Origin: an uncultured Pseudomonadales bacterium
Lineage (GTDB): Bacteria > Pseudomonadota > Gammaproteobacteria > Pseudomonadales > Azotimanducaceae
Direction of reading: 5' to 3'
DNA length: 64,000 nucleotides
Assembly: GCA_958295875.1 (NCBI GenBank)
Contig: OY282379.1
Coordinates: forward strand, 1,860,001-1,924,000
Every line of letters begins with the position of its first letter. Within the stretch, counting starts at the first letter, position 1. The notes beneath the pieces are model-generated. The model made no database searches and was not told the DNA's origin. It saw only the letters and a list, made by a program, of their open reading frames with translations. The translations under genes and the position numbers were made by a program. Shown here piece after piece: positions 3,044-59,705 of this stretch.

Positions 3044-4084
3044 TTAGCCGGCGCCTCCGTCGGCGAGCACCTGCTCGGCGCCGCCGCCACCGCTGGCGCC
3101 GCGGATGATGCGGACAATCGGAATGTGTACCGGCGCCGCGGCTTCCTCCATCTCCATAACAGGCACCCGCAGGACGTCGTCGATGCCGACCAGCCCGTCC
3201 GGGCCGCGGCCCTCGTCGTACTCGTCAATCGCCGCCACCAACTCCCTCACCGGACGCATCGCCAATGTCAGCCGACCAGCGCTGGAAGCCAAGGCGATGC
3301 GCTCCGCATCCACCGGGTACACCTCCAGTGTGTAGGTGTCGCCTTCGTCTCGAAGGGGCTCTTCGGTGGCCACGGAGAGCAGCGAACCGTCCTCGTAGCG
3401 GTTGAGCTGCAGCGTTCGCGAGCCCACGGCCAACACGCGCACATCGCTCACAATCACCTGCGCCGATGGCCCAAACCCGCCAACGGCGCCATCAGTGCCG
3501 GTATAGACGAGAATCACGTCCACATGGTCGCCGGGGTAGATGATGTTCGCGCTGGTGGTGGCGCGGTCAATCGACACGGTGACAGCGCGCCGGTCCGGGT
3601 TCATCACCGCGGTGATGAACCCCGGCGCGCCGGGGCGGATGACGCGGTCCCAGCCGATGTAGTCTCCTGTCAAGATCGGTCGGCTGACGACGGAACCGAG
3701 CACGGCGTCGCGGGACACGGCGCCCTGCACCACCGCCACATCCAACACCAACGCCTCGCGCCACTCGCGCCACTCCACCAGTTCCGGCCGCAGCAAGACG
3801 CCCGTTTGGAGGTCGACCTTCGCCACCAGCACCGTGGGATAGGAGGGCTCAGGCTCTTCAGAGGGCGGCGGCTCGGGTTCCGGAACGGGTTCGGGCGCCA
3901 CCACTACCTCTACCTCTGGCGCCGGTGCCGGCGGCGGCTCGGGCGACTCCGAGAAGACGGCGCGAACGCCGAACCAAGACACCACCGCCACCGTCACGGC
4001 GGCGAGGCCGGCAAGGATGTTGCGACCGCTGAAGGCATCGGGCAAACCGCCGAAGCGGTCTGTGAAGTCAGACATCGGAGGCAT
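3044..4084 (-). CDS. cpaB: Flp pilus assembly protein CpaB/RcpC
   Basis: A 346-residue protein with one membrane segment near residues 25-45 (NILAGLAAVTVAVVSWFGV). A Glu/Pro-rich periplasmic linker (about residues 55-90) and a SAF-type beta-clip domain follow, the latter from ARVDLQTG-like VAKVDLQTGVLLRPELVEW onward, with YPGDHVDVILVYTG. That order defines CpaB/RcpC, a periplasmic factor working with the Tad secretin. The ATG at 4084 lies three bases after the cpaA stop (TGA at 4088-4090), so the two are tightly linked. A second ATG nine bases inside (MSDFTD) is possible. The Pro/Glu linker may span peptidoglycan, an inference from composition only. Confidence 0.88.
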   Translation of the reverse strand: MPPMSDFTDRFGGLPDAFSGRNILAGLAAVTVAVVSWFGVRAVFSESPEPPPAPAPEVEVVVAPEPVPEPEPPPSEEPEPSYPTVLVAKVDLQTGVLLRPELVEWREWREALVLDVAVVQGAVSRDAVLGSVVSRPILTGDYIGWDRVIRPGAPGFITAVMNPDRRAVTVSIDRATTSANIIYPGDHVDVILVYTGTDGAVGGFGPSAQVIVSDVRVLAVGSRTLQLNRYEDGSLLSVATEEPLRDEGDTYTLEVYPVDAERIALASSAGRLTLAMRPVRELVAAIDEYDEGRGPDGLVGIDDVLRVPVMEMEEAAAPVHIPIVRIIRGASGGGGAEQVLADGGAG

Positions 4085-4087
4085 CGT

Positions 4088-4579
4088 TCAACCCAGTGCG
4101 CGGGCTGCCAGCAATGTGGCGGCCGGCGGCGCGATGGCGGCTGCCAACGGCAGGCCGCGACGTCGGTATTCGCCGTCGCCGCGCAGCATCGCCGGCAACG
4201 CCAACAACAAGCCCAAGGCGCCGGTCGCAAGCAGGGCCAGCCCGATGTCGGCGGGGCCCAGCCACATGGCCAGCACCGCCAAGAGCTTGCCATCGCCACC
4301 GCCAAGCCAGCCCAGCGCATGCAGGATGAAGCCAAACAGCAACGCCGCCGCTCCGCAGAGCAGGCCGGCGGTTGGGGCGGCACCGAGCGCTGCGGGGGCC
4401 CAAACGGCCGCCACACCCCACAGGAGCGCCAAGCCAATGACGATCCAGTGGGGCACTTCCCGCCGCTTCACGTCGGTCCAAACGGCAACCAACGCCAGCG
4501 CCGCGCTCAATCCAAGCACCGCGGGGCCAAGCCAAGCCATGGCAGGCAGCCGGCGGAGAGTCACCCCCCGCGCCGGCAT
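4088..4579 (-). CDS. cpaA: Tad-type prepilin peptidase CpaA (A24 family)
   Basis: A 163-residue polytopic membrane protein with both catalytic aspartate signatures of A24 prepilin peptidases. The first is in TDVKRREVPHWI after the first helix. The second is in LGGGDGKLLAVLAMWLGP, the GxGD motif. It cleaves the leader of the Flp pilin encoded just upstream. Five to six hydrophobic helices fill the rest, and there is no N-terminal methylase-type cysteine domain, as expected for the short Tad form. Twelve bases separate it from the pilin stop. The start at 4579 has no clear ribosome site; an ATG at 4540 would remove 13 residues before the first helix. Confidence 0.88.
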   Translation of the reverse strand: MPARGVTLRRLPAMAWLGPAVLGLSAALALVAVWTDVKRREVPHWIVIGLALLWGVAAVWAPAALGAAPTAGLLCGAAALLFGFILHALGWLGGGDGKLLAVLAMWLGPADIGLALLATGALGLLLALPAMLRGDGEYRRRGLPLAAAIAPPAATLLAARALG

Positions 4580-4591
4580 GGCGCCTAGGTA

Positions 4592-4822
4592 CTAGGAGCT
4601 TGCAGCACTGGAGACTTCGCCCGCGGCGGCCGTCATGCGGTCGGACAGGTCGTCGAACATGCCTTCAAACGCATCTCCGAGCGTCGCAGCGCCAATGCCA
4701 ACGATGGCGATGATCGCCACCACAATCAGCGCATACTCGACGGAAGACACGCCACGCAGGTCTGCCAGAAACCGCGCCACCGCGGCACACAAGCGCAGCC
4801 AAAGCCGGTTGAGTATCATCAT
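4592..4822 (-). CDS. flp: Flp/Fap-type major pilin
   Basis: A small pilin precursor of 76 residues. A basic leader (MMILNRLWLRLCAAVARFLA) is followed by the Flp signature GVSSVEYALIVVAIIAIVGIG. The prepilin peptidase site lies before the Glu-Tyr pair, and the hydrophobic stretch packs in the pilus core. The tail is Ser/Ala-rich. An open frame extends to 4858, but GGAGG at 4827-4831 lies four bases before the ATG at 4822 and seven before a second ATG at 4819, so one of these two starts is used. It is the first gene of the minus-strand Tad operon and has its own promoter at 4861-4889. Confidence 0.9.
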   Translation of the reverse strand: MMILNRLWLRLCAAVARFLADLRGVSSVEYALIVVAIIAIVGIGAATLGDAFEGMFDDLSDRMTAAAGEVSSAASS

Positions 4823-4889: not shown

Positions 4890-5025
4890 CGCTTGCATGG
4901 GACGGGAGCGGTAGTCGAACGGCAGCGACCTCAAGGGACATGATGGCAAGGCGTGCTACCGATGCGGGTAGTTTCTGTGCAAGCCCCACCGCCGGTGCCC
5001 AAGACGCTCGCAGATTGGCGCGGCC

Positions 5026-6678
5026 ATGCTGGCGACCGTGGCCGCCGGCGAGGTCGTTGCCAAACGTGGGCTGCGGCGCTGGTTGCCCAATGCGGCCGGG
5101 GCGGCGCTGATGCTGGCCGAGCTGCGCGTCCGGCCGGCCTTCGCGGCGCTGCCGGCCGCGGTGCTCCTCACCTTCGCGTTCCGCTCCTTCGCACACGGGG
5201 TGGGGGCGGACGAACTCAGCCTGTTGGTGATGGCGCAGGCCATCCGCGATGGCACGCTCCCCTACGAAACCTATTGGGATGTGCGGCCGCCGCTGGCGTA
5301 CCTGTGGTCGCTGCCTTCCACCTTTGCCGCGGATGCCACCCGCGCCGTCGCCACGTTGCGGATGGCCGCGTGGCTCGCGCAAGTTCTGGCGGTGTGGACG
5401 TTCTTCTGCCTGTTCCAGCGCACGTTGGGCACGGCTGCGACGGCCTTGGGCGCGCTGGCGCTCACCGTCTCGGCCAACTGGACGGCATTGCACGCCATGG
5501 CCATGCCGAACCACTTTTCGATGGCATTGTCCGTGCTCGCCTTCGCCTGCGCCATCGCCGGGCGCCGCGGCCGCGGCGCTGCCCACTACGCTGGCGCCCT
5601 CATCGCCGGTGCGCTGCCTTGGGTGATGGTCCACGCGGCGCCGATGTCTGTTGCGTTGGCCGTGCTGGCGATGCTGCCGGGCAGTGCTGGCCCTGTTCTG
5701 CGGCGGCACTTGCTTTGGGCCGCCACAGCCGCGCTGCCCACCCTTGCCGTCGTCAGCACGTTCCTGTTGGGGGGGCATTTCGACGTGCTCGCGCGCACCG
5801 CATTTGGCGCCCCGCTTGGCGTCTTCGAGCTGCGCGGCGCCGGCGGCCAGCGCGCCTTTGCTGTCGGGGACGTCTGGCACATCTTCGCCGCCGCGCCCTG
5901 GCTCGCGTTGCCGGCGCTGGCCGCCCTCTTCGGTTTGGTTTGTCTGCCCGCCACGCTGCGTCGGGCGCCGCCGCAATCCGCGTTGCGCCACGCGGCGTTC
6001 CTCGTGGCGCCGTTGGCGCTTGGCTTCGCCGCGATGGCCTACGCCAAGCCGCCGGCGCCGCCGGAGTATTGGATAGACATGGCGCCGGTGATGGCGCTTT
6101 TGGTCGCGGTGGCGGCGGCGCGGGCGGGCGCATGGCGTGGCTGGGCCGAGCTCAAGCGCCCGGCCCTCGCGGCCGCGCTGCGGGCCGCCGTCGCGGCGAG
6201 CCTCGCCGCCGCGCTCGCGCTGCCAGCAGACCCTTGGCGGAAGCCGCCGCAGCGCCTGCCCAACGCCTACTGCCGCCACGCTGTGGCATACTGGCTCAGC
6301 CAATTGGGCCCCGGCGAGACGGTTCTCGACGTCACTGGTTTATGCGGCTTCCACTTGCTCGATGCCAGCGCGAGATTGCATCCGCCGTTCACGTTTCCGC
6401 CATTGTGGCTGCGCCAGCTCAACCAACCTTGGGTCGGCGCGGCTTTGGACGGCGACGGCGCCGAGACCGCCGCGGCGCGGCGCCTGCGCACCGCTCTTGC
6501 ACCCACTTCCACTGTCACGCTCATCCTCGCCGACAGTGAACTGCTGAACGCCGTGCGCGAGCGGGGGTGGGGAAGGGACTTGCACCGGCACTGGCGGATG
6601 GTCTGGTTCCGCCGCGTGGCCGGCATCGAAACCGGCGGGCGTCTCGCTAGGTTGGCGATCCTCAAGCGCCGCCCGTGA
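5026..6678 (+). CDS. membrane glycosyltransferase, PMT/ArnT-like
   Basis: A 550-residue polytopic protein. Near the N-terminus it has the signature of lipid-linked-sugar glycosyltransferases of the GT-C fold: GADELSLLVMAQAIRDG, then LPYETYWDVRPPLAYLW. The acidic pair in the first periplasmic loop (ADE) is the catalytic region in PMT and ArnT relatives. About ten hydrophobic helices follow up to residue 400, then a soluble C-terminal domain of roughly 150 residues. It probably moves a sugar from a polyprenyl-phosphate donor to an envelope acceptor; donor and acceptor cannot be read from sequence. Its TGA overlaps the GTG start of the OpgB-like gene (GTGA), so the two are co-translated. It is divergent from the Tad operon; 5026 is the first in-frame ATG and has no strong ribosome site. 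Confidence 0.7.
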   Translation: MLATVAAGEVVAKRGLRRWLPNAAGAALMLAELRVRPAFAALPAAVLLTFAFRSFAHGVGADELSLLVMAQAIRDGTLPYETYWDVRPPLAYLWSLPSTFAADATRAVATLRMAAWLAQVLAVWTFFCLFQRTLGTAATALGALALTVSANWTALHAMAMPNHFSMALSVLAFACAIAGRRGRGAAHYAGALIAGALPWVMVHAAPMSVALAVLAMLPGSAGPVLRRHLLWAATAALPTLAVVSTFLLGGHFDVLARTAFGAPLGVFELRGAGGQRAFAVGDVWHIFAAAPWLALPALAALFGLVCLPATLRRAPPQSALRHAAFLVAPLALGFAAMAYAKPPAPPEYWIDMAPVMALLVAVAAARAGAWRGWAELKRPALAAALRAAVAASLAAALALPADPWRKPPQRLPNAYCRHAVAYWLSQLGPGETVLDVTGLCGFHLLDASARLHPPFTFPPLWLRQLNQPWVGAALDGDGAETAAARRLRTALAPTSTVTLILADSELLNAVRERGWGRDLHRHWRMVWFRRVAGIETGGRLARLAILKRRP

Positions 6679-51640: not shown

Positions 51641-52441
51641 CTAGGAAGCCGCCCGTGCCGCCTCTTCGCGCGCCGCCCGCACCTTCCCGCTGTCTTGGTT
51701 GAAGAGCAGCTCGCGGCGGGCTTTCTCCTCCGCCTCGGTGAGTTCGCGCTGGCCCCACTCGCGATGGGCGCGGAAGCCCCGGTCCACGGCCGGGCGGGCG
51801 CGCAGCTGATCCACCCAACGCTTCAGGTGCGGGCAGTTCTCCCACATCTCTTCGCCGAGCATGCGGCCGATGAGCATCGCCCACGGCCAGCTGATGATGT
51901 CCGCAATGCTGTATTCCGCGCCAGCCAGGTATTCATTGGCGGAAAGCTGCGCATCCATCACGCCGGAGAGCCGGTCCACTTCGCCGACGAAGCGCTTTTC
52001 CCCATAGGTCAGCATCTTCGGGTCTTCAACGATGTTGCGGGCGTAGTTCTTGAAGTGGTTGGCGTTGCCCATCATCGGCCCCAGGTTCGCCATCTGCCAA
52101 TGCACCCATTGCAAAACGCGGTAGCGCCCAGCCACGTCCTTCGGCAGAAACTTGCCCGTCTTTTCCGCCAAGTACTCCAGAATCGCGCCGGATTCGAAGA
52201 TGGCCAATGGCTCGCCGCCGCCCAACGGCTCGTCGTCCACGATCGCCGGCATCCGGTTGTTCGGGCTGATGCGCAGGAACTCGGGCTTGAACTGATCGCC
52301 ACCGCCGATGTCCACGGGAATCGCCCGGTAATCCAGGCCGCACTCTTCAAGCATGATGGTGGCCTTCCAGCCGTTCGGGGTGGGCCAGTAGTAGAGGTCG
52401 ATCAAGGTGGGCTCCTTTGCGGGGTCGTCGAAGGCGGGCAT
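51641..52441 (-). CDS. glutathione S-transferase (copy A of a duplicated gene)
   Basis: A 266-residue glutathione transferase of the YghU/Ure2p-like group: LIDLYYWPTPNGWKATIMLE, KPEFLRISPNNRMPAIVDDE and IFESGAILEYLAEKTG form the thioredoxin domain, with the helical domain from about residue 105. Its first 251 residues differ at only about 11 positions from the N-terminus of the fusion protein at 57931-59691. After the shared NQDS the two sequences part, and this one ends within 15 residues. ATG at 52441 with GAGG eight bases upstream. It is divergent from the IorAB-like genes and precedes the histidine phosphatase. Confidence 0.9.
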   Translation of the reverse strand: MPAFDDPAKEPTLIDLYYWPTPNGWKATIMLEECGLDYRAIPVDIGGGDQFKPEFLRISPNNRMPAIVDDEPLGGGEPLAIFESGAILEYLAEKTGKFLPKDVAGRYRVLQWVHWQMANLGPMMGNANHFKNYARNIVEDPKMLTYGEKRFVGEVDRLSGVMDAQLSANEYLAGAEYSIADIISWPWAMLIGRMLGEEMWENCPHLKRWVDQLRARPAVDRGFRAHREWGQRELTEAEEKARRELLFNQDSGKVRAAREEAARAAS

Positions 52442-52455
52442 GTTAACGCCTCGCC
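51671..52455 (-). repeat. GST direct repeat, copy A
   Basis: About 785 bp that recur at 58921-59705 in the same orientation, with no insertion or deletion by eye (constant offset of 7250) and long identical stretches. It includes most of the GST coding sequence and about 14 bases upstream of its ATG. Confidence 0.85.
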
Positions 52456-55251: not shown

Positions 55252-55273
55252 CCTTCATCTGAAGGCGTATACT
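55252..55273 (+). promoter_or_regulatory. -10 element and operator-like palindrome before the PIN-partner gene
   Basis: A perfect palindrome CCTTCA-TC-TGAAGG (55252-55265) lies directly before TATACT (55268-55273), a five-of-six -10 box. No good -35 is visible. A dyad in the spacer just before the -10 box is the usual place for a repressor site of a self-regulated operon. The genes at 55319 and 56106 lie downstream. Confidence 0.4.
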
Positions 55274-55318
55274 CATGATCGCGCTCGCCCATGCGGCCAC
55301 GCGGTGAATCTGACGCCA

Positions 55319-56101
55319 ATGGACGAAACGACCGCTGCCCAACATGTTGGATTCAGCCTCTCCGAGGACGCTGTCTCTCTGAGCACCTTCACCTCCGCAG
55401 CAGATTCGCTTGCGAAGCTGCTTGGCGCACTCGAAGCGTCCATCGCAGATACACAGCTTCTAGATTGGCAAATCCAGGACTTGAGTGTCGGCAGCGCCAA
55501 TCTCTCGATCAGACCAAGCGTCCTCAACGACCTGGGCAGCAGCGTAATCTCTTCGGCCCTCGATGGGCTTGCCTTGGTGGAGGGCGCTCCGATGCGTCCT
55601 CCTCACTTCAGTGATGCCGCGCTTAGGTCGGCGAAGTCTCTCGTCAGCGCAACGAAGGACGGCGCCGGACGCTTGGCGGTCTTCGGCAAGTGCAACGGCG
55701 CCGTGGTTCGGCGCGTAACCGTCTCGAAACGCCTTACTGCACATGTGGACGAGCTGATCGGCTTCTCGTCCGTCGCTATGGGTTCGCTGGAGGGCACCCT
55801 TGAAGCCATGACCATTCATGGCTCTATAACGTTCAGCATTTATGACGCCATAACTGATCGCAGGACGCAGTGCAACTGCAGCCGAAAAATGCTCAACTTC
55901 GCTATGAAGCACTTTGGTGAACGAGTGTCTGTGAGCGGCGAAATCAGGTTCAACGTTCAGGGAGAGCCAACGGCGATGGGAGTTGACGAGATCCGGCCGC
56001 TGGGTGTTGGGCCGCTTCCTCAGCCCGAGGACATGCATGGTATTTTTTCGGACGACCCAGTCGACATCGATGAATGGTCTCGATTTGTAAGAGAAGACTA
56101 G
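55319..56101 (+). CDS. unknown protein encoded with a PIN-domain gene
   Basis: A 260-residue protein that I cannot assign. It begins with DETTAAQHVGFSLSEDA, is helical over residues 20-110, then forms mixed beta segments such as GRLAVFGKCNGAVVRRVTVS, TIHGSITFSIYDAITDRRTQ and VSVSGEIRFNVQGEPTAMGV. It ends with a short acidic tail DDPVDIDEWSRFVRED. No helix-turn-helix of the usual antitoxins is obvious. The PIN-domain gene starts five bases after its stop, so they form an operon. The acidic tail could dock on the partner, as many antitoxin C-termini do; this is inference. ATG at 55319 or GTG at 55304. The region is clearly less GC-rich than the genes on either side. Confidence 0.62.
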   Translation: MDETTAAQHVGFSLSEDAVSLSTFTSAADSLAKLLGALEASIADTQLLDWQIQDLSVGSANLSIRPSVLNDLGSSVISSALDGLALVEGAPMRPPHFSDAALRSAKSLVSATKDGAGRLAVFGKCNGAVVRRVTVSKRLTAHVDELIGFSSVAMGSLEGTLEAMTIHGSITFSIYDAITDRRTQCNCSRKMLNFAMKHFGERVSVSGEIRFNVQGEPTAMGVDEIRPLGVGPLPQPEDMHGIFSDDPVDIDEWSRFVRED

Positions 56102-56105
56102 ATGA

Positions 56106-56573
56106 ATGGTCTCTCGCAAACCCAAAATTAGGCGATACTGGGATGCTACCTGTTTTCTCGCGTTGCTCAACGGCGAAGAAGACGCGGAGGTGTGTGAGCG
56201 TATTCTCAATGACGCAAAGCGGTTAGCCACCGAAATCTGCGTATCGCCAATGGTCCAAATTGAAGTTGTACGGCCCAAGAGCGCTCCTAGACCGCTTGCC
56301 GTGGAATCGCGCGAGAGAATCCGCGCCTTCTTCGAGAATGACTATATCAAGTGGCGGATAATCGATCGCAAGATATCCAACGACGCCCAGAAGCTTTGTT
56401 GGGACCATCCGCTCCATCCCAGAGACGCGGTACATTTGGCTGTGGCGCTTGACTTGGAGTGTGATCTGCTAGAGACGGCCGATAAGAACCTATTGAACCT
56501 AGATCAACAAGTCCTGCCCAGCGCACTTAGGATCTGTAGGCCAGGGACGATAGGGCAAGCGACGCTATTCTGA
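56106..56573 (+). CDS. PIN-domain protein
   Basis: A 155-residue protein with a PIN-type nuclease core: D13 in RRYWDATCFLALL, E53 in VQIEVV, D107 in HPRDAVHLAVALDLECD and D126 in LLETADKNLL. This set of four acids is that of VapC-like ribonucleases that cleave tRNA or rRNA. It is slightly longer than typical VapC. The 260-residue unknown protein lies five bases upstream. If this is a toxin, that protein is the natural antitoxin candidate, though far larger than VapB. Composition is less GC-rich than the flanks. Confidence 0.78.
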   Translation: MVSRKPKIRRYWDATCFLALLNGEEDAEVCERILNDAKRLATEICVSPMVQIEVVRPKSAPRPLAVESRERIRAFFENDYIKWRIIDRKISNDAQKLCWDHPLHPRDAVHLAVALDLECDLLETADKNLLNLDQQVLPSALRICRPGTIGQATLF

Positions 56574-56584
56574 AAAGGCGACCC

Positions 56585-56824
56585 GTCGGAGGGCTTCTGT
56601 ACGGGCGCATGACGCCAGAGGCCGTTAGTGATGGCGATACCGACTACCGCAACCCGCTGCTCGCGGAAATCATTGCCAACCTTGGTTTTGCGCAACGTTT
56701 TGGGCTTGGCATTCCCTTGGCCAACCGGGCGCTCACGGACAACGGCAACCCGCCCCCAGAGTTCGGCTTCCTGCCAGAGCTTGTGACGGTGACGGTGCGA
56801 GCGCGGCGCGACCCTCGCACATGA
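56585..56824 (+). pseudogene. C-terminal remnant of an AlbA/HATPase_c_4-type ATP-binding protein
   Basis: The frame from GGLLYGRMTPEAVSDGDTDY through RNPLLAEIIANLGFAQRFGL and NGNPPPEFGF is the C-terminal end of the helicase-like ATP-binding proteins that have an AlbA_2 N-terminus and a HATPase_c_4 domain. The normal protein has some 400 residues before this point, and none of it is found upstream, where the PIN gene ends 12 bases away. No ribosome site precedes the ATG at 56609. I read this as the remnant left by a deletion or replacement. Confidence 0.68.
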
Positions 56825-56875
56825 AAAGGGAATCACATACTTGGTTGCCCAACCATCTCGCGGTTGAGCGCGGGG

Positions 56876-57034
56876 CTATCGCTCTAGCCCGCGTGGCCGC
56901 CGCGTTTCCGGCCGGCGCTTGGCTCCGCCATGCATCAGCGCCTTGGCGACCTGCTCCCGTGTCGCGTCGGCGATCCGCAAGTCCTTCTGGTCAGGAGAGC
57001 GTTTCCATGTCTCGCCTTTCTTCCGTCGCGCCAT
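56876..57034 (-). CDS. conserved-looking 52-residue basic protein
   Basis: A small protein: MARRKKGETWKRSP, then DLRIADATREQVAKALMHGG and a basic Arg/Pro tail. The IADATREQVAKAL core resembles the small accessory proteins with an (I/V)xDATPEQVAxAL helix found near bacterial mobile or defence genes; this is recognised by eye. The ATG at 57034 has GGGGGA six bases upstream, which supports real translation. It is divergent from the gene at 57075, with only 40 bases between the two starts. The function is unknown. Confidence 0.58.
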   Translation of the reverse strand: MARRKKGETWKRSPDQKDLRIADATREQVAKALMHGGAKRRPETRRPRGLER

Positions 57035-57074
57035 GTCGGTTCCCCCACATCGCTTCCCGTGGTACGCTGTCGCC

Positions 57075-57761
57075 ATGATCATACAAAGCACAGACGGTAG
57101 ATCACTCAAGACGTTGGAGGACTGGTCGCTCCGTAAGCGTAACCACTGGAAACGTGGGCGCAGCGCGTATGAGGTGGCGAACTTCATCGTCAACCGAAAT
57201 GGTGCAGACAAGCTCGAACGAAAGGTCTCCGAGGTGCTCGGCGGCACCGTTCAGTTCGACAAGATCACGCCTGAGTACGTAGTGCCATTCGACAAACAAC
57301 GTGGCCAGGGCAGAGTCCATGATCTCGGGATTTGGGGCGCAACCTCGTCCGGAGACAGCCTGTTCGTAGGCGTGGAAGCAAAGGTCGACGAGCCGTTCGG
57401 CCCGATCATCGCAGACGAGTGGAAAAAGCGAACCGTTGGAAAAGAAGCCCGCATACGCCAACTGTGCGACCGGTTCCCGGGAATCAGCGTAGACAGCAAA
57501 ATCCGCTACCAGCTCATGTACGCTGCGGCGGGAACCGTGTGCGAGCGCGCCAAGGTCTCGGTGTTCTACATAGTGGTATTCGTGACGGACTGCTACGACC
57601 CAAAGGAAGGCAAAAAAAACTACAATGACTACATGGAGTTCATTCGCCGTGCCGGCGGAGACCGCACTGCCCGCAATGTCATCGGCCCAACGTGCCACAG
57701 GCTTGATCTAGCCGGCAGGCGCCTCATCACCATCTACGACCACGTCTGCGAAGGGGACTAG
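57075..57761 (+). CDS. unknown protein, possibly PD-(D/E)xK nuclease-like
   Basis: A 228-residue protein. D83 in VHDLGIWG is followed about 18 residues later by E101-x-K103 in LFVGVEAKVDEPFG, the layout of a PD-(D/E)xK nuclease. The remainder includes EARIRQLCDRFPGI and a beta strand VSVFYIVVFVTDCYD. It recalls the DUF6946-type proteins, but the family name is from memory. The ATG at 57075 is chosen because the upstream frame lies over the divergent small gene. Composition is less GC-rich than the flanks. A defence role is possible given the island around it, but not shown. Confidence 0.6.
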   Translation: MIIQSTDGRSLKTLEDWSLRKRNHWKRGRSAYEVANFIVNRNGADKLERKVSEVLGGTVQFDKITPEYVVPFDKQRGQGRVHDLGIWGATSSGDSLFVGVEAKVDEPFGPIIADEWKKRTVGKEARIRQLCDRFPGISVDSKIRYQLMYAAAGTVCERAKVSVFYIVVFVTDCYDPKEGKKNYNDYMEFIRRAGGDRTARNVIGPTCHRLDLAGRRLITIYDHVCEGD

Positions 57762-57930
57762 CGGCCCGACGCTGCCCGTCGGCGGTCGCTCTGTCACCAC
57801 TACCCTATCGCACCCGCCTCCCTCAATTCAGGGGCGACCGTAACAGGTTGGGCAACAAAGTATGTAATTCCCCATGAAAAAGCATCGCCGTTTTCAACAA
57901 CAGAAGTGGCATCGGCAAGACTTCGCACCG

Positions 57931-59691
57931 CTACCAGCGTTCCGGAAGCTGCGTGAAGTGGGCAGCGGCGGTCGTCGCCGGCGAGATGTCGTCCAAGCCG
58001 AAGCGCTGCAATAGGTCGTTGTAGCGTTGAATGGCCTCGTCGCGGCGAATGCTTGACGTTTCTCTGTACGCCGCCAAGCTGCGGGCGTGAACATCAGGCC
58101 CACGACCGATCCGGCCGACGCCGGCCCAAGAATCGAACAACGAGCCGATGTCAATGGCCACCCCTCCTCGCTGCTTAATCCAATGGCAATAGATCTTGCC
58201 GAAGGCCCCGGCGCCCACGAGGAACAGGGCGCCCGGGAACGGAACGGTGAGTTCTTCGTGTAGTTGGCGGTAGCCGTCGGGATAGTGCATGGTCTCTATT
58301 GGGCCGGGCTGGTCGATGTCGAAGTCGGTGAAGTGCGTCATGTCTTCGCCGCGCACGCCATACCACCGGGTTGCGCGGATGCCGAACAGCGCCTGTAGGT
58401 CTTCGGCAATGTTCCGACAGGAAATCAAGCCCAGGAAGCTCGCACCCTGAAGCAGCGGACGATAGAGCAGCGCATACTGCAATAGCCGAGTGAGAGCCGA
58501 ATAAGTCACTAACGTGGACGCGCTTCGCAGGTTGAACGCCTCGATGGCTTGGGATACTGCCCGGAAGGTGCGATAGACCATCTGCTTTGGGCGCGGCAGG
58601 CCCACGATGTCTGCATCTTTCACCGCGGCCCTCAGCGCATCGACTAGCTGGCGGACGTCGGCCTCCGCGACGTCCTTTGTCCGAATCCATCTCAGCAGGT
58701 ACTCATCCACATCGCGTCGATTCGTAATCTCCGGGTAGCCGAGGACAACACCTTCGCCATCGCCAAGGCGAAGCACGGAACAGGGCGTTCCCTGATCCAT
58801 CCGTCGCTTCACTTCCAAGAAAACCTGGAACGCGTCGAGCCAAGCCTCCGTGCCGGCAAGTTCGACTTTGCGCCGGGTGTCCGCTTGGCGCTTTGCGACC
58901 GTCTGGGCTGCGGCTTTGCGCGCCGCCTGCACCCCCTCGCTGTCTTGGTTGAAGAGCAGCTCGCGGCGGGCTTTTTCCTCCGCCTCGGTGAGTTCGCGCT
59001 GGCCCCATTCGCGATGGGCGCGGAAGCCCCGGTCCACGGCCGGGCGGGCGCGCAGCTGATCCACCCAACGCTTCAGGTGCGGGCAGTTCTCCCACATCTC
59101 TTCGCCGAGCATGCGGCCGATGAGCATCGCCCACGGCCAGCTGATGATGTCCGCAATGCTGTATTCGGCGCCGGCCAAGTATTCATTGGCGGACAGCTGG
59201 GCGTCCATCACGCCGGAGAGCCGGTCCACCTCGCCGACGAAGCGCTTTTCCCCATAGGCCAGCATCTTCGGGTCGTCAACGATGTTGCGGGCGTAGTTCT
59301 TGAAGTGGTTGGCGTTGCCCATCATCGGCCCTAGGTTCGCCATCTGCCAATGCACCCACTGCAAGACGCGGTAGCGCCCGGCGACGTCCTTGGGCAGGAA
59401 CTTGCCTGTCCTTTCCGCCAGGTACTCCAGAATGGCGCCGGATTCGAAGATGGCCAACGGCTCGCCGCCGCCCAACGGCTCGTCGTCCACGATCGCCGGC
59501 ATCCGGTTGTTCGGGCTGATGCGCAGGAACTCCGGCTTGAATTGGTCGCCGCGGCCGATGTCCACGGGGATCACGCGGTACTTCAGGCCGCACTCCTCCA
59601 GCATGATGGTGGCCTTCCAGCCATTCGGGGTGGGCCAGTAGTGGAGGTCGATCAAGGTGGCCTCCTTTGCGGGGCCGCTGAAAGCGGACAT
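57931..59691 (-). CDS. GST-GT-D fusion protein (copy B of the duplicated GST)
   Basis: A 586-residue fusion. Residues 1-251 are a complete glutathione transferase, about 96 percent identical by eye to the protein at 51641-52441, up to NQDS. A charged helical linker (about residues 252-285, AARKAAAQTVAKRQADTRRK) follows. From there to the end is a GT-D-fold glycosyltransferase-like domain: SVLRLGDGEGVVLGYPE (residues 305-321), DADIVGLPRPKQ, FLGLISCRNIAEDLQALFGI and FLVGAGAFGKIYCHWIKQ with GVAIDIGSLFDSWAGVGR. GT-D domains act in glycan addition to surface proteins. I know of no functional reason to join them with GST. The fusion is in frame with no stop at the junction. ATG at 59691. Confidence 0.85.
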   Translation of the reverse strand: MSAFSGPAKEATLIDLHYWPTPNGWKATIMLEECGLKYRVIPVDIGRGDQFKPEFLRISPNNRMPAIVDDEPLGGGEPLAIFESGAILEYLAERTGKFLPKDVAGRYRVLQWVHWQMANLGPMMGNANHFKNYARNIVDDPKMLAYGEKRFVGEVDRLSGVMDAQLSANEYLAGAEYSIADIISWPWAMLIGRMLGEEMWENCPHLKRWVDQLRARPAVDRGFRAHREWGQRELTEAEEKARRELLFNQDSEGVQAARKAAAQTVAKRQADTRRKVELAGTEAWLDAFQVFLEVKRRMDQGTPCSVLRLGDGEGVVLGYPEITNRRDVDEYLLRWIRTKDVAEADVRQLVDALRAAVKDADIVGLPRPKQMVYRTFRAVSQAIEAFNLRSASTLVTYSALTRLLQYALLYRPLLQGASFLGLISCRNIAEDLQALFGIRATRWYGVRGEDMTHFTDFDIDQPGPIETMHYPDGYRQLHEELTVPFPGALFLVGAGAFGKIYCHWIKQRGGVAIDIGSLFDSWAGVGRIGRGPDVHARSLAAYRETSSIRRDEAIQRYNDLLQRFGLDDISPATTAAAHFTQLPERW

Positions 59692-59705
59692 GGTAACGCC
59701 CCGCC
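58921..59705 (-). repeat. GST direct repeat, copy B
   Basis: The partner of the repeat at 51671-52455, same orientation. The similarity stops at the left end where the GT-D-fusion linker begins and at the right end about 14 bases before the ATG. The two copies lie 6.5 kb apart. Confidence 0.85.

What the first reader, a model, noticed from the sequence alone, without database searches (positions are those of the whole stretch)
55252..56573. PIN-domain gene with an unrecognised 260-residue partner and an operator-like dyad
The PIN protein has all four acidic residues and starts five bases after a protein that looks like no VapB-type antitoxin. A perfect 14-bp palindrome sits next to a -10 box upstream. 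Low GC and island context fit a toxin-antitoxin-like or defence module of a kind I do not know.
Basis: partly seen in the sequence, partly recalled or inferred. Interest (0 to 1): 0.5.

Follow-up and report, generated by a model that had tools for sequence, protein, structure and literature searches.

The report
Toxin-like nuclease with unnamed antitoxin-like partner
Two neighbouring bacterial genes, a PIN-type nuclease and an unnamed partner protein, form a pair that recurs in distant bacteria, sometimes as cargo of a small jumping element, and probably work as a toxin and its antidote.

Summary
The two-gene pair is real and conserved. The 265-residue upstream protein has no match in Pfam, NCBIfam, PADLOC, PHROGs or PDB sequences. 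Searches found 15 further loci with a relative. Of the 13 found through the partner alone and readable downstream, 12 have a PIN gene directly after it. Partner and PIN co-diverge (r = 0.90, 11 pairs), both genes are under purifying selection, and three active-site acids are invariant in the 13 PINs compared (the fourth in 12). One partner precedes a different PIN subtype; one locus has three tandem partners before one PIN. Best reading: a VapBC-like toxin-antitoxin module with a large, unnamed antitoxin family whose Arg-bearing tail may block the active site (inferred). In 7 of 16 loci an IS1595-family transposase or fragment lies upstream; five partners (four with PIN) lie between IS1595-type ends, with perfect (2) or 7-of-8 (2) target duplications. 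The window copy shows no such ends, and 10 other IS1595 loci lacked the pair. The 'perfect palindrome' is imperfect, lies outside the conserved unit and is unsupported as an operator. Toxicity, neutralisation and fold are untested; AlphaFold gave no usable model.

The parts
55304..56101 (+). Partner gene, antitoxin-like, 265 aa (GTG start; ATG at 55319 is an alternative), of a family not named in the libraries searched
   Evidence: relatives in 15 further loci; dN/dS 0.22 against L010
56106..56573 (+). PIN-domain nuclease, toxin-like, 155 aa; acidic residues D13, E53, D107, D126
   Evidence: PF01850 E 6e-13; D13, E53, D107 in 13 of 13 aligned PINs and D126 in 12 of 13, the broken PIN of L033 left out; dN/dS 0.17
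56063..56098 (+). C-terminal tail of the partner (residues 254-265, with Arg263); inferred to insert into the PIN active site
   Evidence: tail comparison; analogy to S. flexneri VapB Arg64; inference, not modelled
55275..56582 (+). Stretch aligned with the closest relative L010 (78% identity): the two genes plus a short leader
55268..55273 (+). -10-like hexamer TATACT just before the conserved unit; by eye L010 has TACAAT at about the matching place. Promoter unproven
   Evidence: no two-box promoter found
55252..55265 (.).

Best explanation
A type II toxin-antitoxin-like module. The downstream gene makes a VapC-like PIN ribonuclease (the toxin). The upstream, closely coupled gene makes a large antitoxin (about 230-330 aa in the loci found, start codons uncertain) of a family with no recognised DNA-binding domain. 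The antitoxin probably silences the PIN by a VapB-like C-terminal tail: a short aromatic or hydrophobic stretch followed by an arginine that would sit among the acidic active-site residues in place of a metal ion. The module moves between genomes, in several cases as a passenger behind the transposase of an IS1595-family element, where it could act as an addiction or maintenance cassette. Shown: the pairing, its conservation, co-divergence, purifying selection between the two closest copies, active-site conservation, and carriage between IS1595-type ends in relatives. Inferred: nuclease activity, toxicity, neutralisation, tail mechanism and maintenance role.
For: PIN directly downstream in 12 of 13 testable loci found through the partner alone; in 14 of 15 testable loci when the window and L014 (found through its PIN) are added. 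With the first possible start codon of each PIN taken, the genes overlap or lie at most 4 nt apart in all 14; in L053 a later TTG start would leave about 6 nt. Co-divergence r = 0.895 over 11 pairs, 0.824 without L010, permutation p 1e-4. D13, E53 and D107 are invariant in 13 of 13 PINs aligned; D126 is in 12, with N in L054. The one PDB sequence match of the PIN profile at E <= 0.1 is a 'Ribonuclease VapC' (7by2, E 7e-5). dN/dS is 0.22 and 0.17 between window and L010. L054 pairs a weaker partner relative (E 2e-7) with a PIN that this family's PIN profile does not pick up, and L053 has three tandem partner copies before one PIN. The PIN of the plasmid relative is annotated 'type II toxin-antitoxin system VapC family toxin', its partner 'hypothetical protein'. 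Tails resemble the inhibitory mode described for VapB Arg64 (passages of PMC3384007). Reverse test: three PIN queries (one at E 0.01, two at 1e-6) against 72,556 plasmid records each hit only one record, the one that has the partner.
Against: No toxicity or neutralisation data. No DNA-binding domain was recognised in the partner, which is 2-4 times larger than typical VapB antitoxins (that size is recalled). In L019 (L012) the partner is split by an in-frame TAA (GTG follows at once) while the PIN frame stays open, which a strict addiction pair should not tolerate. L036 has a partner with no PIN. In L033 the PIN is broken. The long tail is missing in L018, L030 and L031, and L031 has Lys instead of Arg. 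D126 is N in the PIN of L054. Both AlphaFold2 models are unusable (mean pLDDT 31 and 36), so fold and complex are untested. Co-divergence also follows from simple joint inheritance.
Confidence: 0.74

Rival explanations
1. A two-gene defence system: the partner is a sensor, perhaps a nucleic-acid binder through an OB-like C-terminal domain, that keeps the PIN nuclease off until a phage or foreign element is sensed.
For: L054 lies beside a type I restriction-modification gene, and L035's element also carries a DNA methylase with a restriction-endonuclease-like domain. Sub-threshold hits of C-terminal partner regions to tRNA_anti-like (E 0.099, L034) and BPL_C (E 0.005, L031). Large partner size.
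Against: No PADLOC family for window partner or PIN at E <= 1; in 11 PINs two single hits at E 0.02-0.03. Flanks looked at by eye in L010, L017 and L019 hold ordinary genes; flanks were not surveyed systematically. The OB-like hits are below the curated cut-offs.
Confidence: 0.15
2. The pair regulates IS1595 transposition: the partner or PIN tunes transposase expression or processing, and stand-alone copies such as the window's are relics.
For: Transposase, partner and PIN lie in one direction, transposase and partner 17 nt apart (L014), 26 nt apart (L031) or overlapping by 4 nt (L035) (coordinates). Terminal repeats enclose all three. A paper's title calls TA pairs in Tn3 transposons an apparent integral part of the transposition module (PMC7157771; passages read do not show a regulatory role).
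Against: 9 of 16 loci have no IS1595 transposase in the stretch read (L018, L032 and L053 lie near contig ends). The window copy is conserved away from any such element. The 10 other IS1595 transposase loci of plasmids viewed, of 141 matching records, had no partner or PIN.
Confidence: 0.08
3. A housekeeping RNA-processing pair, not toxic, kept by its host.
For: Purifying selection on both genes.
Against: Patchy presence. Genomes with a match that I count as real, query or seed genome included: 1 full copy plus 1 fragment of 390, 2 of 369, 3 of 398, 9 of 289, 1 of 78, 4 of 369 (same class and number). Differing flanks and transposon carriage.
Confidence: 0.03

Closest known systems
VapBC type II toxin-antitoxin systems (PIN toxin)
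   Same: PIN nuclease with the acidic active site, encoded directly after a partner gene; partner tail with aromatic residues and Arg like VapB (passages of PMC3384007)
   Different: Partner of about 230-330 aa with no recognised RHH, AbrB, Phd, MerR or HTH domain; no supported operator
PIN partners listed by Makarova et al. 2009 (COG2442/DUF433, COG2886, COG2880/DUF104, COG1753, MerR and others; passages of PMC2701414)
   Same: Gene next to PIN taken as antitoxin from gene neighbourhood
   Different: I saw no partner of this kind in the passages read (their tables were cut off in part); the ones described there are small or DNA-binding proteins
TA gene pairs in Tn3-family transposons (PMC7157771, passages)
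   Same: TA pairs, two of them with a PF01850 PIN, as part of a transposon; antitoxin generally first
   Different: Other transposon family (the term IS1595 does not occur in that text), antitoxins of known families
IS1595-family elements with passenger genes (tISCpe8, MTnSag1; passages of PMC5704250)
   Same: 25-bp terminal repeats, 8-bp target duplications, elements with passenger genes
   Different: Cargo here is a PIN pair; the cargo of tISCpe8, by the title of its cited paper, is lincomycin resistance

Membership tests
VapBC type II toxin-antitoxin | PIN-domain toxin with conserved acidic active-site residues | tested here: met
   PF01850 E 6e-13; D13, E53, D107 in 13 of 13 aligned PINs, D126 in 12 of 13
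VapBC type II toxin-antitoxin | Antitoxin gene directly upstream, coupled, conserved as a pair | tested here: met
   14 of 15 testable loci; overlap or <= 4 nt in these 14 with first possible starts; co-divergence
VapBC type II toxin-antitoxin | Antitoxin of a known VapB-type family with a DNA-binding domain | tested here: not met
   Members of the 13-row alignment: no NCBIfam, PHROG or Pfam family matched by more than one member at E <= 0.1. An unrecognised DNA-binding fold is not excluded
VapBC type II toxin-antitoxin | Antitoxin C-terminal tail with Arg occupying the toxin active site | tested here: inconclusive
   Arg263 column nearly invariant in 13 aligned members, tails read in 18 sequences; no complex model; long tail absent in L018, L030, L031
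VapBC type II toxin-antitoxin | Operator dyad, autoregulation | tested here: inconclusive
   The one dyad seen is imperfect, about 0.06 expected by count, and outside the unit shared with L010
VapBC type II toxin-antitoxin | Toxin inhibits growth, antitoxin neutralises | not testable with these tools
   needs experiment
IS1595-family passenger | IS1595 transposase adjacent, inside shared terminal inverted repeats | tested here: not met
   Window: best terminal-repeat scores 7.4 and 9.2, below the shuffle median of 10.2; the only PF12762 match in the genome lies at 1446305, about 0.47 Mb away. Met in relatives: transposase or fragment in 7 of 16 loci, paired ends in 5, 4 of them with a PIN
Known anti-phage defence system (PADLOC) | Match to a PADLOC model | tested here: not met
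   0 families for window partner and PIN; 11 PINs: two single weak hits at E 0.02-0.03. The relatives' partners were not scanned with PADLOC

The most novel reading that the evidence does not exclude
A distinct toxin-antitoxin class in which a large, structurally new antitoxin controls a PIN nuclease, spread as an integral cargo of IS1595-family transposons (transposase, antitoxin, toxin in one operon between terminal repeats), so that a simple insertion sequence carries its own addiction or transposition-control module.
Probability: 0.35. Interest if true: 0.62.

Novelty: new variant of a known kind. Interest (0 to 1): 0.5.

Why it matters
It would add an antitoxin family, missing from the Pfam, NCBIfam and PADLOC copies searched, to the PIN toxins, an abundant toxin group, and so turn some 'hypothetical protein' neighbours of PIN genes into testable antitoxins. 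It also gives cases of a toxin-antitoxin-like pair carried inside IS1595-family elements with recognisable ends and target duplications, which makes the question whether small transposons use addiction modules for maintenance or transposition control directly testable.

Tried and rejected
Operator reading of the 55252 dyad: not supported. Structural route: AlphaFold2 on partner and PIN with two-row alignments gave mean pLDDT 31 and 36; no fold search was run on them and no fold is claimed. An OB-like C-terminal domain was considered from sub-threshold hits and left as a hint. Viral contigs: single-protein scans with the window partner and three relatives found no relative. Phages: no tblastn match of the window partner, the only query tried there. 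Plasmids: seven partner queries; the window's, L012's, L016's and L031's found none, L014's, L034's and L035's found only pMOC1. Hits dropped before the counts: L011 (35-residue fragment in a same-family genome, no PIN), L013 (inside a reading frame that I take for a nitrite reductase), L039 (E 0.008 inside a 997-residue frame). L037 was left out of the pairing count because the partner stops at the contig edge. One alignment held a row with wrong coordinates and was replaced. A suspected methylase in L036's element was dropped: no Pfam match at E 1e-3. The expectation that IS1595 elements commonly carry this module was not borne out: none of 10 plasmid loci viewed, of 141 records.

Full report
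What is there. The window holds two adjacent genes on the + strand, 55304-56101 (265 aa) and 56106-56573 (155 aa). The second is a PIN protein (PF01850, E 6e-13). The first has no match in Pfam, PADLOC, NCBIfam (E <= 1) or PDB sequences (E <= 10). In a 13-member alignment of the family, no NCBIfam, PHROG or Pfam family was matched by more than one member at E <= 0.1, and its profile gave one PDB hit at E 0.24. GC is 57% and 53% against 66% for the window.

The pair is conserved. The closest relative (L010, an uncultured Pseudomonadales genome, 75% identity) has the same two genes 1 nt apart. The aligned DNA runs from window 55275 to 56582 and covers only the two genes and a short leader. Between these two copies dN/dS is 0.22 (partner) and 0.17 (PIN). 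Genome searches, seed or own genome included in each tally, gave: with the single protein 2 of 390 genomes in the order (own and a fragment) and 3 of 369 in the class (own, G572 and one dropped); with profiles 3 of 398 in the phylum, 9 of 289 in the class of G1075, 2 of 78 in the class of G825 (one dropped) and 4 of 369 in the window's class. A plasmid of Methylobacterium oryzae was found through its PIN. In all there are 16 loci with a partner: window, L010, L014, L017, L018, L019 (the wider view of L012), L030-L037, L053, L054.

PIN genes follow the partner. L037's partner stops at a contig edge. Of the other 15 loci, 14 have a PIN directly downstream; in L033 the PIN frame is broken, and in L036 no PIN was found in six frames. 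Counting only loci found through the partner, it is 12 of 13. With first possible start codons the genes overlap or are at most 4 nt apart in all 14; in L053 a later TTG would leave about 6 nt. Of 12 PIN matches in this genome eight were fetched with flanks, L006 being the window's own; the partner profile hit only L006. Of the five others printed on the coding strand, four (L002, L004, L005, L008) have a 77-86 aa ORF directly before the PIN and L003 a 189-aa one (by eye). Partner and PIN distances correlate at r = 0.895 over 11 pairs (0.824 without L010; permutation p 1e-4). D13, E53 and D107 are invariant in the 13 PINs aligned (L033 left out); D126 is in 12 of 13, with N in L054.

Two unusual loci bear on function. 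In L053 three tandem partner copies (3086-3985, 3998-4816, 4910-5734) precede one PIN, with a fourth partial copy beyond it. In L054 a weaker relative (E 2e-7) precedes a PIN that the PIN profile of this family does not pick up but Pfam does (E 5e-17), beside a type I restriction-modification gene. The partner thus seems to go with more than one PIN subtype, as an antitoxin family might. Against a strict addiction reading, L019 has an in-frame stop in the partner with an open PIN frame.

Mechanism. In the S. flexneri VapBC structure VapB aromatic residues pack on VapC and Arg64 enters the acidic active site (passages of PMC3384007). Many partner tails here end in a hydrophobic or aromatic stretch and an Arg (WSRFVRED, YLDLLREG, YLARLRDG, FITEVRNG), and Arg263 is a nearly invariant column in the 13-row alignment. 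L018, L030 and L031 lack the long tail, and L031 has Lys instead. The tail mechanism is an inference from sequence; AlphaFold2 gave no usable model.

Mobility. An IS1595-family transposase or its fragment lies upstream on the same strand in 7 of 16 loci (L014, L017, L019, L031, L035, L036, L037). The five tested with Pfam all match PF12762; L036 and L037 have only fragments and rest on the similarity search. Terminal repeats of the IS1595 type bound transposase and partner in L014, L017, L031, L035 and L036, with the PIN inside in the first four; one end is left in L019 and L034. The repeat model was built from the L014, L017 and L031 ends, so L035, L036, L019 and L034 are the independent finds. 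They score 14.7 and 17.8 (L035), 19.9 and 20.4 (L036), 30.4 (L019) and 16.3 (L034). Single-base shuffles of one 11-kb locus gave a median best of 10.2, a 95% point of 14.0 and a maximum of 19.4 in 200, so L035 and L034 alone would be weak; L054, with no transposase found, also has unpaired hits at 14.4 and 14.2. The flanking 8-bp duplications support the ends: perfect in L014 and L031, 7 of 8 in L035 and L036, absent in L017. These are the features described for IS1595-transposase elements with cargo (25-bp repeats, 8-bp duplications; passages of PMC5704250). The window and L010 modules show no such ends. Conversely, 10 of 141 plasmid records with related transposases were viewed and none has the pair, so the module is an occasional cargo.

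Literature. Nine searches of open-licence papers, on IS1595 with PIN domain, passenger genes or toxin-antitoxin, on TA pairs in transposons, on novel PIN antitoxins, VapBC structures and OB-fold antitoxins, returned no paper whose listing describes this family or this cargo. Only passages of four papers were read; the others were seen as listings. The claim that it is undescribed rests on that.

Verdict. A conserved, mobile, VapBC-like pair with a large antitoxin-like partner family absent from the libraries searched: a new variant of a known kind. Activity is unproven.

Noticed in passing
window 56828-57872: A 1045-bp cassette with 27-bp inverted repeats (93% complementary) flanked by a perfect 8-bp duplication CATGAAAA (56820-56827 and 57873-57880), carrying a DUF6946 gene (PF22187 E 3e-24) and no transposase that I recognised: it looks like a mobile insertion cassette just behind the PIN module.
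   Followed up: partly
L044 2944-2970 (genome position 3028943): A further copy of that repeat end (3 mismatches) elsewhere in the genome lies near a DUF433 gene (PF04255 E 3e-15), a family listed as a PIN-associated antitoxin; no matching second end was found there.
   Followed up: partly
window 51664-52455 and 58914-59705: Direct repeat of 792 bp at 93.7% identity within two reading frames that look like glutathione S-transferases (named by eye) and flank the 6.5-kb stretch holding the PIN module.
   Followed up: partly
window 56609-56824: Short ORF matching the C-terminal part of a RecG-like ATPase domain (PF13749 E 2e-7), apparently a remnant, between the PIN gene and the cassette.
   Followed up: no
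L035 7025-8623: The IS1595-type element in L035 also carries a DNA methylase gene with a restriction-endonuclease-like domain (PF01555 E 8e-44, Mrr_cat E 2e-4) behind the PIN pair.
   Followed up: no
L011 1501-1605: A genome of the same family holds a 35-residue remnant of the partner's C-terminal part (60% identity) with no PIN seen nearby: probably a decayed copy.
   Followed up: no
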